DNA of 64,000 nucleotides from Jaapia argillacea MUCL 33604. Its lineage: Eukaryota > Basidiomycota > Agaricomycetes > Jaapiales > Jaapiaceae. Location of the stretch: assembly GCA_000697665.1 (NCBI GenBank), contig KL197723.1:314876-378875 (forward strand), written 5' to 3'. Within the stretch, counting starts at the first letter, position 1, and each line of letters starts with the position of its first letter. This document shows, in pieces, positions 50,958 through 55,412 of this stretch. The position numbers and the translations under genes are program-made. The notes under the pieces are model-generated. The model did no database searches, was not told where the DNA came from, and saw nothing but the letters and a program-made list of their open reading frames with translations.

Positions 50958-52345
50958 TCATACATAGAAACCCTTCCAAGCGATATCATCAACTACTCCT
51001 TTGTCAAGGGCATCGATGAATGACAGACAAACGCCCGAAGACATCGTCGACCCCGCATTCTCAAATGCCTGTACATATCTCGTCTGTTCTATGCTCGTAC
51101 CACAATAAATCAGCACCGGTGCGCGATACTGTCGGCCACGTAGATATCTGAGGATATTTTCCCCCGCAGAAAGGTTCATGAAGTCCCTCTCCCTAGATCC
51201 CGGCCCATGTTCGAAACGAGCATTGTCTGAAATGAAACGAAGACGATTGGCGCGATCGGCCTTTCGTAACAGGCCTTGGAGGAGAACAGGCTAAGCGACC
51301 TGGTAATGATTGGGGAAGAAGATCACATACCCTCGTTAGCTTCCATCCAAGCTTTGGCGGACGCCGTGGATAGCAGGTTAATGGTAACGATCCCCAGTTC
51401 CTTGGCATGCCTGGATCCGTGTTCGTTGTTGGCGGGTCGGTCGTCAATCCACACGATCACTGGCTTCACTGTCATATCGACATTCATTTCTTCGGATTGA
51501 TCTGTACCCGACCGATGGAATTGAGCATAATCTAGATGGCAGACTTCAACCAGAGGCTCACCTAGTTCAGGCATTGGATTCAATGCTGCGACGGTGTCTC
51601 GGATCGGCTTACTCCCCATGAATCGGCCGAAGCTCGACGGTGTCACCCCTCCAATAGCATACTCGTCTACGTGGAGAAGCATCGTATCCCGAGTGGTCTG
51701 GTCAAGTTCCACTTTGAGCCATTGGCTGATGGCGACGCAAAATTCCTCCCCAGGCACACAGTGAACCTGCAAAGGTCGCATCCGGTGAGTGTGGTGATAA
51801 CTTATACAAGGTGACATACATACATTGTCCCCAATCGCTTCTTTCCAGAATCTTTTGGCCTCCAGACTACTGATGCAATCCAAAGGTGACGTCGATTGGG
51901 CGGTATAAGGTGGCGGGGCTGGTTGCAACTCTGGCAGAGCTGCAAACTGTAGCGAGACAGATAGTATGTCAAGGTGTCGTAACAAACGGCTCTCATCCTC
52001 GCGCATCTGATCTATGATCTGAGAAGGCTTCAAGAAATTGAGCAGGGCCGTCATCCCTTTCCGCTTCTCTTGCCAAATGACGAGGTGGTCACGGGTAACC
52101 ATGACGGTTTCGCCCAAATTCTGAAGACACGCCACGACGCTTCGGCTAAGGGGAGATTGTGTGGGAGGTGACGACTTCCCAGCGTTCGCGGCTCGATCCT
52201 GTAATGGTTCCAAGAGATCGCAGACGAGCGATACGGTCTTCTTCAAGTCTCTTAGGGCGACCTCTTTGTATTCCTGTTCGACCATCCATTGTTGGACCGC
52301 GAGGCAAGCCGAAACGACAGCTGTGAGGACGGTAAACGCTTCCAT
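50958..52345 (-). CDS. Helical-bundle N-terminus plus receiver/TIR-like C-terminal protein
   Basis: I do not know a named family. From the ATG at 52343-52345 the first 140 residues are helical (FTVLTAVVSACLAVQQWMVE; LRDLKKTVSLVCDLLEPLQ; LRHLDILSVSLQFA) and resemble the four-helix N-terminal bundles of fungal HeLo-like and MLKL-like death-signalling proteins. A proline-rich linker follows, then a middle segment (EAIGDN joined over an intron to VHCVPGEEFCVAISQW, LLHVDEYAIGGVTPSSFGRFM) of EF-hand-like look. The C-terminal domain begins PVIVWIDDRPANN, continues LGIVTINLLSTASAKAWME, and after an intron gives YLRGRQYRAPVLIYCGTS and AGSTMSSGVCLSFIDAL, a Rossmann-like receiver or TIR-like pattern with an acidic pair after strand 1. 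Introns lie at about 51778-51824, 51500-51560 and 51240-51325. Stop at 50958-50960. Function inferred only from layout. Confidence 0.6.
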
Positions 52346-52880: not shown

Positions 52881-52968
52881 GATGCCTTTTTTGGACATAA
52901 AATATGCCTATTTTGGATATCAGGTATGCCTTTTTGGGACATTAGATATGCCTTTTTTGGACATAAAG
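52881..52968 (+). repeat. 22-bp minisatellite, four units
   Basis: Four consecutive 22-bp units start at 52881, 52903, 52925 and 52947. Each is a variant of TATGCCTTTTTTGGACATAA plus two bases. The lack of length change between units marks a true tandem array. Confidence 0.8.
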
Positions 52969-55034: not shown

Positions 55035-55210
55035 CACCTGTTTCTAGCCAATCAGAGTCTCAATTACTCATCCCATTCTCACGCTTCTAGATTCCAACCA
55101 ATCACAGTCCAGGCTGAATAATCCACTTCTCGCGCCTCCAGATTTCAACCAATCATGATCCAGGCTGAGTAATCTGCTTCTCGTGCCTCTCTTTTCTATC
55201 CAATCACAGT
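55035..55210. repeat. Short tandem array with CCAAT motifs
   Basis: About three diverged units of 50-60 bp, each containing CCAATCA and a CCAGGCTGA(A/G)TAATC or related segment, followed by TTCTCG(C/T)GCCTC. The inverted CCAAT motifs could be promoter elements for - strand transcription. Confidence 0.6.
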
Positions 55211-55412
55211 CAGATTGAGTCAGCCGCTTACTGAACTCATCTGACAAATCATTTGAGTGACTTGTAGGCAGAATGGAGGGATGTAGCAATGTTTGATTGT
55301 CCACAAGAGGAAGAATGAGATAAATGGAACAGAGACAATGATAGTGAGGACATTTGATTGCATGACAACTTGGCATAATGTTGAAATATTGGATTGACCC
55401 AAAGTAGAGGAA

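What the first reader, a model, noticed from the sequence alone, without database searches (positions are those of the whole stretch)
50958..52345. Uncharacterised protein joining a death-fold-like helical bundle to a receiver/TIR-like domain
Seen: a helical N-terminus of about 140 residues, a middle EF-hand-like segment, and a C-terminal alpha/beta domain opening with VIVWIDDRP and closing with APVLIYCGTS. Known: HeLo-like and MLKL-like bundles are cell-death executioners in fungi, and TIR or receiver-like Rossmann domains act as sensors or NAD-cleaving enzymes in immune systems. Inference: this layout would suit a compact non-self recognition or regulated-death protein, with no NACHT/NB-ARC or kinase between the two ends. 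It is the best candidate here for an undescribed system.
Basis: partly seen in the sequence, partly recalled or inferred. Interest (0 to 1): 0.7.

Follow-up and report, generated by a model that had tools for sequence, protein, structure and literature searches.

The report
Fungal protein with bacterial-style switch domain
A fungal gene ends in a degenerate "receiver" switch domain of a kind that some bacteria attach to TIR- and SIR2-type domains and membrane segments, here joined to a fast-changing, probably helical front half, which hints at a self-contained defence or death switch that has not been tested.

Summary
The gene is real: minus strand, 52345-50958, three exons, 424 residues; intron 2 ends earlier than the obvious acceptor. 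This genome shows three copies. The C-terminal half is firmly a pseudo-receiver, not TIR: it matches a bacterial "WVDDRPENN...SDMGR" receiver subfamily (hhalign 99.0%, E 5e-18; other parts of the protein 0.1-0.2%). A bacterial member folds as a receiver (pLDDT 95, TM to 0.90). Of 55 bacterial members scanned, 6 carry TIR_2, 1 SIR2_2, 2 KAP NTPase, 3 a weak DUF4062; many others show membrane segments by eye. No neighbour family recurs, so no partner kinase is evident. A plasmid relative has a SLOG domain and a MoxR-type ATPase gene beside it. The acidic pair and Asp are kept, the Thr and Lys lost, so control without phosphorylation is likely. The N-terminal 137 residues look helical, start hydrophobic and evolve faster (dN/dS 0.73 against 0.23-0.26). 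No HeLo, MLKL or death-fold match was found, and the model is too poor to decide; the EF-hand-like middle is weak.

The parts
51824..52345 (-). Exon 1 (codons 1-174). N-terminal helical region is residues 1-137 (52345-51935), opening with a hydrophobic stretch; then a Pro-rich linker
   Evidence: helices from a low-confidence model; hydrophobic start
51767..51823 (-). Intron 1, 57 bp, GTATGT...TTTGCAG; it contains no stop, so the frame reads through
   Evidence: same length and place in the copy at C15:291802-293201
51331..51766 (-). Exon 2 (codons 175-320, last codon split): rest of the EF-hand-like middle (to residue 240, about 51569), variable linker 241-274, and strand 1 to helix 2 of the pseudo-receiver (from residue 275, about 51466)
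51275..51330 (-). Intron 2, 56 bp, GTATGT...CCAAG; a downstream CAG ending at 51227 is rejected as the acceptor
50958..51274 (-). Exon 3: rest of the pseudo-receiver (Asp site D336 at 51227-51225; strand 4 APVLIYC, 371-377) and C-terminal tail; stop 50960-50958
51003..51466 (-). Pseudo-receiver domain, residues 275-410 (interrupted by intron 2); acidic pair D282/D283, RPxNN, SDxxR
   Evidence: hhalign to the bacterial family prob 99.0, E 5.2e-18; HMM 39.6-44.0 bits against at most 5.2 for 500 shuffles
51569..51874 (-). EF-hand-like middle, residues 158-240 (interrupted by intron 1)
   Evidence: Pfam Cbl_N2 E 0.025 for the fragment, below cut-off; segment shared by all three copies, 41% identity to the distant one

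Best explanation
The gene encodes a self-contained two-part switch protein. The C-terminal part is a degenerate receiver (pseudo-receiver) homologous to a bacterial subfamily that is found as the constant module of effector-type fusions and next to a MoxR-type ATPase gene in one plasmid (shown by homology). Its acidic pocket is kept but the Thr and Lys that read out phosphorylation are lost (shown by alignment), so it most likely changes state by binding a small ligand (perhaps a nucleotide) or a partner, or by dimerising, not through a histidine kinase (inferred). The N-terminal part is a faster-evolving, probably helical region with a hydrophobic start, linked through a degenerate EF-hand-like segment; it is most likely the output, a membrane-acting or oligomerising effector held off by the pseudo-receiver (inferred). 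In bacteria the same receiver follows TIR, SIR2 or membrane-segment parts at the same place (fusions shown, function inferred). The likely role is regulated defence, cell death or nonself response.
For: Fungal C-domain vs bacterial family: hhalign 99.0%, E 5.2e-18 over 104 columns; the same protein's N-terminal and middle profiles score 0.1 and 0.2%. Family HMM: 39.6-44.0 bits for the three copies, best of 500 shuffles 5.2; with the DDRPxNN stretch removed 9.7-14.2 against a best shuffle of 7.6. Bacterial members: 54 of 55 hit Response_reg at E<=1e-3; 6 of 55 carry TIR_2, 2 KAP_NTPase, 1 SIR2_2, and 3 a weak DUF4062. One member (L046) folds at pLDDT 95.3; its 35 best PDB hits are response-regulator receivers, TM 0.82-0.90. 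Context: among 106 nearest-neighbour reading frames at 56 of 60 loci no Pfam family is hit by more than two (E<=1e-4); the only one at two is Phage_integrase, so no recurrent histidine kinase. Rhizobium member: SLOG domain in the same protein, MoxR-type ATPase gene next to it. Active site in bacteria: D7 49/49, D8 49/49, D51 48/49; T site (by position) is Ala in 40/49 and Thr in 7/49; Lys is not among the commonest residues at the strand-5 site. Fungal: D282, D283, D336 in 3 of 3, T site Cys. Rates: N-part 0.73, linker 1.12, receiver 0.23-0.26. Literature: a prediction that kinase-independent receivers in conflict systems are nucleotide-responsive switches, PMC8195603 (passage); ligand binding by pseudo-receivers, PMC12632262 (passages).
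Against: The fungal protein itself does not reach PF00072; the link needs the bacterial intermediate family, first reached through one E. coli hit at E 2e-3, and most of the HMM score comes from the DDRPxNN stretch. The N-terminal region matches no known effector fold and its model is uninformative. I know of no test of any bacterial member for defence; many carry only membrane segments, and two frames (L039, L062) have almost nothing before the domain, so a signalling role fits too. The bacterial set was fetched with patterns that include WVDDRPEN, so the near-invariance of that motif is partly by construction. Only one fungal genome could be searched. A dN/dS of 0.73 between two copies is weak constraint, not positive selection.
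Confidence: 0.45

Rival explanations
1. Phosphorelay-linked regulator: the domain is still a working receiver that takes phosphate on D336 from a fungal hybrid kinase/HPt system and controls a helical scaffold.
For: The acidic pair and Asp are kept in 3 of 3 copies. The genome has Response_reg hits over cut-off at several other places, not inspected further. PMC12632262 notes that changes at DD, T or K need not abolish phosphorylation (passage).
Against: T and K sites are not conserved in the family nor in the fungal copies; no histidine kinase family recurs next to bacterial relatives.
Confidence: 0.15
2. Non-immune adaptor: a Cbl-like layout of helical bundle, EF-hand-like segment and third domain, used for binding partners in ordinary signalling or development.
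For: Weak Cbl_N2 match at the right place, after a probably helical region. In Cbl the four-helix bundle and EF-hand form one unit with an SH2 domain (recalled).
Against: Match is below Pfam cut-off, and no Cbl chain is among the 4 PDB hits of the middle profile; no other Cbl_N2-like place in this genome, though that search rang nowhere in its controls either; N-terminus evolves faster than the rest.
Confidence: 0.2
3. HeLo/MLKL-type pore-forming executioner fused to a receiver, as the first reader proposed in substance (a special case of the best explanation).
For: Probably all-helical N-terminus with a hydrophobic start (19-residue Kyte-Doolittle maximum 1.56-1.64 in the three copies; low-confidence helices). 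Hundreds of putative stand-alone pore-forming domains were reported in Basidiomycota (PMC9815663, section 29).
Against: No HeLo-type Pfam match; profile shows no similarity to the PigL_N/HeLo-like proteins of the same genome (prob 0.4%); the PDB profile search finds no HeLo or MLKL chain.
Confidence: 0.25
4. Decaying or neutral gene: a domain kept without present function.
For: N-terminal and linker regions show weak constraint between the two close copies (0.73 and 1.12).
Against: Open frames in all three copies; receiver region under purifying selection (0.23-0.26), and the C-terminal stretch is 53% identical to the distant copy.
Confidence: 0.08

Closest known systems
Bacterial receiver-like subfamily with WVDDRPENN...SDMGR motif (PF00072; fused to membrane segments, TIR_2, SIR2_2, KAP_NTPase, weak DUF4062; named 'response regulator' in the 20 E. 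coli records listed)
   Same: Same domain by profile comparison, kept DD and D, lost T and K; C-terminal to a variable N-terminal part in most frames seen
   Different: Fungal domain has insertions of about 10 residues before strand 3 and 11 after it, a different N-terminal half, and introns. Two bacterial frames (L039, L062) lack an N-terminal part and the Rhizobium one has the domain inside the protein
Kinase-independent receiver domains in MoxR-vWA and related conflict systems (PMC7159879, PMC8195603; passages only)
   Same: Receivers without histidine kinases as effector or switch modules; a Rhizobium relative lies beside a MoxR-type ATPase and carries a SLOG domain
   Different: The fungal protein contains no MoxR, vWA or STAND domain; its genomic neighbours were not annotated here
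Pseudo-receivers (CikA, KaiA, ShkA, JadR1 in PMC12632262; passages only)
   Same: Receiver homologue lacking one or more of the five active-site residues; ligand binding is one known control
   Different: The named examples are bacterial, several of them on kinases or DNA-binding regulators
Fungal HeLo / HELL / BaMLKL proteins (PMC9815663, PMC12881547; passages, and section 29 of the former)
   Same: Fungal protein with a probably helical N-terminus and a separate C-terminal region
   Different: No detectable sequence similarity; the C-terminal region is a receiver, not an amyloid motif or NLR
Cbl N-terminal unit (4-helix bundle, EF-hand, SH2; layout recalled)
   Same: Order of a helical region and an EF-hand-like segment; weak Cbl_N2 score
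   Different: Below cut-off; third domain is a receiver, not SH2

Membership tests
Receiver domain (PF00072) | Profile similarity to the receiver family | tested here: met
   Not met directly by the fungal protein but met through the bacterial subfamily: hhalign 99.0%, 54 of 55 members hit PF00072 at E<=1e-3, some below its cut-off
Receiver domain (PF00072) | (beta-alpha)5 receiver fold | tested here: inconclusive
Canonical phosphorylatable receiver | All five residues DD, D, T/S, K | tested here: not met
   DD and D kept; T site is Cys in the fungal copies and no Lys at the strand-5 site; family counts
Pseudo-receiver (definition in PMC12632262: lacks any one of the five) | Receiver homologue lacking at least one active-site residue | tested here: met
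   definition read as a passage
Two-component response regulator | Partner histidine kinase | tested here: inconclusive
   No recurrent kinase family next to bacterial relatives; not tested in the fungus
TIR domain | TIR profile match | tested here: not met
   No TIR model hit for the fungal protein with E up to 10 allowed; HMMER's filters drop most matches above about 0.1
HeLo / HELL / MLKL four-helix bundle | Sequence profile match | tested here: not met
   the CDD MLKL_NTD model was not on hand
HeLo / HELL / MLKL four-helix bundle | Bundle fold | tested here: inconclusive
   Single-sequence model pLDDT 41.6; no structure search made with it
HeLo / HELL / MLKL four-helix bundle | Membrane targeting and cell killing | not testable with these tools
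   needs expression
EF-hand (calcium binding) / Cbl_N2 | Profile match and Ca-ligand loop | tested here: inconclusive
   E 0.025 below cut-off; loop lacks most ligands by eye
NLR / STAND | NACHT or NB-ARC NTPase | tested here: not met
   No such Pfam hit in the 424 residues

The most novel reading that the evidence does not exclude
A fungus has taken over a bacterial conflict-system pseudo-receiver and uses it as the built-in sensor of a one-protein death or immunity effector: ligand binding in the degenerate receiver pocket releases a fast-evolving, membrane-acting helical N-terminus, with no NLR, kinase or amyloid signal. The same receiver would be a signal-reading module shared across kingdoms and plugged onto TIR and SIR2 domains and membrane anchors in bacteria and onto a helical killer in fungi.
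Probability: 0.25. Interest if true: 0.82.

Novelty: new variant of a known kind. Interest (0 to 1): 0.58.

Why it matters
It ties an unannotated fungal gene family to a bacterial receiver subfamily that sits on TIR, SIR2 and membrane-segment proteins. If the receiver reads a shared signal, the bacterial fusions (small genes, easy to clone) and the fungal protein test each other: find the ligand in one and try it in the other. It would also add a control mode for fungal regulated death that needs neither NLRs nor amyloids. In bacteria, the TIR-receiver and SIR2-receiver genes are themselves candidate single-gene defence systems.

Tried and rejected
Splice model with the downstream acceptor (408 residues): rejected because the near copy lacks the AG and the C53 copy keeps homologous residues upstream. 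TIR identity: rejected, no TIR hit. Direct PDB searches with the fungal protein, C-domain, middle and N-terminus gave only hits judged chance. Weak Pfam hits PH_FT_C, DUF2859, EAD10, NCBIfam NF053860, an anti-phage protein model, at E 0.25 and PADLOC E2 at E 0.039 were judged chance; NCBIfam and PADLOC were given two C-domains and exon 1 only, not the middle. A first genome-contig scan with the fungal profile and a viral-contig scan found no relative; phage records have no match to the E. coli domain at E<=1e-3. 15 plasmid records matched the C53 domain at E<=10; the E. coli one at E 2e-3 was the only one below 0.1, and the family rests on what followed, not on that E-value. HeLo-like proteins of this genome found with PF17111, all below its cut-off, show no profile similarity to the N-terminus. 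The Cbl_N2 search of the genome was empty with silent controls, so it says nothing. Eight paper searches (open-licence PMC only, capped listings) showed no description of a receiver joined to a fungal helical death domain in the listings seen; this is not proof of absence. Origin by transfer from bacteria is plausible (a recent bacteria-to-amoeba case for TIR: PMC13142454, abstract only) but untested, since no other fungal or eukaryotic genome could be searched.

Full report
WHAT IS THERE. The gene lies on the minus strand, 52345 to 50958. It has three exons: 52345-51824, 51766-51331 and 51274-50958, with introns of 57 and 56 bp; the protein has 424 residues. Intron 1 has no stop, which is why a 350-residue frame is listed. 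Intron 2 has two possible acceptors. The downstream one, which gives 408 residues, is rejected: the close copy has no AG there, and the distant copy has homologous residues in the extra stretch.

COPIES. The assembly G000 (43.7 Mb, 95 contigs, unnamed) shows three copies at the sensitivity used: the window gene; C15:291802-293201, 89% identical DNA and 83% identical protein, on the same strand about 74 kb away; and C53:133699-135084, four exons, 40% identical protein. The tool warns that its counts are lower bounds. Similarity of the two C15 copies fades soon outside the gene, so this looks like a gene-sized duplication.

THE C-TERMINAL DOMAIN. Directly, the fungal sequence gives no convincing hit in Pfam, NCBIfam or PADLOC and only chance-level hits in PDB sequences. 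A tblastn of the C53 domain against plasmid records gave one useful lead, an E. coli record at E 2e-3. Its frame (L016:3584-4354, 256 residues) has two hydrophobic N-terminal segments, by eye, and a C-terminal domain with ILWVDDRPENN...IISDMDR that hits PF00072 at 1.4e-7. A scan of prokaryote genomes with that domain gave 60 loci with titles from many bacterial and some archaeal groups; three (L074-L076) look like ordinary receivers by eye. A profile of 49 of the 60 (A6; dropped: those three, three truncated or masked (L041, L045, L063) and five close relatives of kept ones (L018, L023, L024, L029, L071)) matches the fungal profile at probability 99.0, E 5.2e-18, 104 columns. Controls: the fungal N-terminal and middle profiles against the same family give 0.1 and 0.2%. 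With an HMM, the three fungal domains score 39.6, 39.9 and 44.0 bits, the best of 500 shuffles 5.2; without the DDRPxNN stretch they score 14.2, 9.7 and 13.5 against a best shuffle of 7.6. So the homology does not rest on the motif alone, though most of the score does. Ascertainment: one search pattern was WVDDRPEN, so its invariance in the bacterial set is partly built in.

FOLD AND ACTIVE SITE. A bacterial member (L046) folds at pLDDT 95.3; its best solved matches are receivers, first 4ja2 at TM 0.90. In A6 the acidic pair is 49/49 and 49/49, the phospho-Asp 48/49, the Arg three residues after it 49/49; the Thr site (by position, end of strand 4) is Ala 40/49, Thr 7/49; strand-5 positions carry Thr 42/49 and Asn 39/49, with Lys not among the commonest residues at the Lys site. 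The fungal copies keep D282, D283, N287, N288, D336 and R339 in 3 of 3, have Cys at the Thr site and no Lys at the strand-5 site. By the definition in PMC12632262 (passages) this is a pseudo-receiver. That paper lists covalent modification, changes of multimeric state and ligand binding as known direct controls.

WHAT THE BACTERIAL RELATIVES LOOK LIKE. Of 55 full-length frames scanned (5 of 60 dropped: the three ordinary receivers and two with masked residues), 54 hit PF00072 at E<=1e-3, 6 TIR_2, 3 DUF4062 (best 3e-4, weak), 2 KAP_NTPase, 1 SIR2_2; many of the rest have membrane segments by eye in the part of the listing that was printed, and L039 and L062 have almost nothing before the domain. 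TIR_2 and SIR2_2 hits are strong in the ten proteins scanned one by one (3e-11 to 5e-26). Among 106 nearest-neighbour frames at 56 of 60 loci, no Pfam family is hit by more than two at E<=1e-4, and the one at two is Phage_integrase: no recurrent partner and no sign of two-component operons. Single neighbours hit ApeA_NTD1 and CAP12-PCTIR_TIR, both names tied to anti-phage proteins. The neighbours were mechanical frames of at least 100 residues cut to 450, so some are not genes. A tblastn of plasmids found 5 records. One is a 1509-residue Rhizobium phaseoli protein, annotated as SAV_2336 N-terminal domain-related, with this receiver (PF00072 E 2e-4, below cut-off), a SLOG domain (PF18306 E 6.5e-7) and, by eye, a caspase-like end, next to a gene annotated as MoxR family ATPase. 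PMC7159879 (passages) describes MoxR-vWA conflict systems and reports receivers among effectors without histidine kinases; PMC8195603 (passages) predicts that such receivers act as nucleotide-responsive switches. The E. coli gene is in 26 of 5,426 complete genomes, all on chromosomes; in the two records opened it lies beyond yfgI beside an AAA ATPase and a truncated integrase, with guaA next in one and phage-type genes in the other.

THE N-TERMINAL HALF. No profile identifies it. A single-sequence model is all-helical but at pLDDT 41.6, so I made no structure search with it. It starts with a hydrophobic stretch in all three copies (19-residue Kyte-Doolittle maximum 1.56-1.64). It shows no profile similarity to the HeLo-like (PigL_N) proteins of the same genome (0.4%). 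The middle segment, with EAKRFWKEAIGD and LLHVDEYAIGGVTPSSF, resembles Cbl_N2 weakly; its loop lacks most Ca ligands by eye.

SELECTION. Between the two close copies dN/dS (Nei-Gojobori, my script) is 0.46 overall, 0.73 for residues 1-137, 0.35 for 158-240, 1.12 for the linker 241-274 and 0.23-0.26 for the receiver. Against the distant copy synonymous sites are saturated in most regions. A conserved sensor with a faster N-terminal half fits an effector-plus-switch, but relaxed constraint fits too.

READING. Shown: gene model (by homology, no transcript), three copies, pseudo-receiver identity, loss of T and K, bacterial fusions. Inferred: ligand or partner control, membrane-acting output, defence or death role, bacterial origin. 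Identity of the C-domain: about 95% sure. Whole mechanism: about 45%. TIR activity of this domain: no support.

Noticed in passing
window 52882-52967: Tandem repeat of 22 nt (about 3.9 copies, ATGCCTTTTTTGGACATAAAAT) roughly 540 bp upstream of the gene's start codon.
   Followed up: no
window 55076-55211: Tandem repeat of 51 nt, 2.7 copies.
   Followed up: no
L002 1-850 (C15, next to the close copy): A reading that looks by eye like the start of a cytochrome P450 gene lies downstream of the close copy; not tested.
   Followed up: no
L016 1565-4354; L087 8027-10771; L088 6027-8771: Rare E. coli insert beyond yfgI (receiver gene in 26 of 5,426 genomes): AAA_15-type ATPase, truncated integrase, membrane-segment pseudo-receiver; possible defence locus.
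   Followed up: partly
L036, L037, L040, L047, L052, L070 (TIR) and L057 (SIR2_2): Bacterial genes fusing a TIR or SIR2 domain to this pseudo-receiver: candidate single-gene defence systems (L040 and L052 assigned TIR by eye plus the count of 6).
   Followed up: partly
L089 3276-7805: Rhizobium phaseoli plasmid protein of 1509 residues with this pseudo-receiver, a SLOG domain and a caspase-like end by eye, beside a MoxR-type ATPase gene.
   Followed up: partly
L077, L078, L079 (G000 contig C8): HeLo-like (PigL_N, sub-threshold) proteins elsewhere in the same fungal genome.
   Followed up: partly
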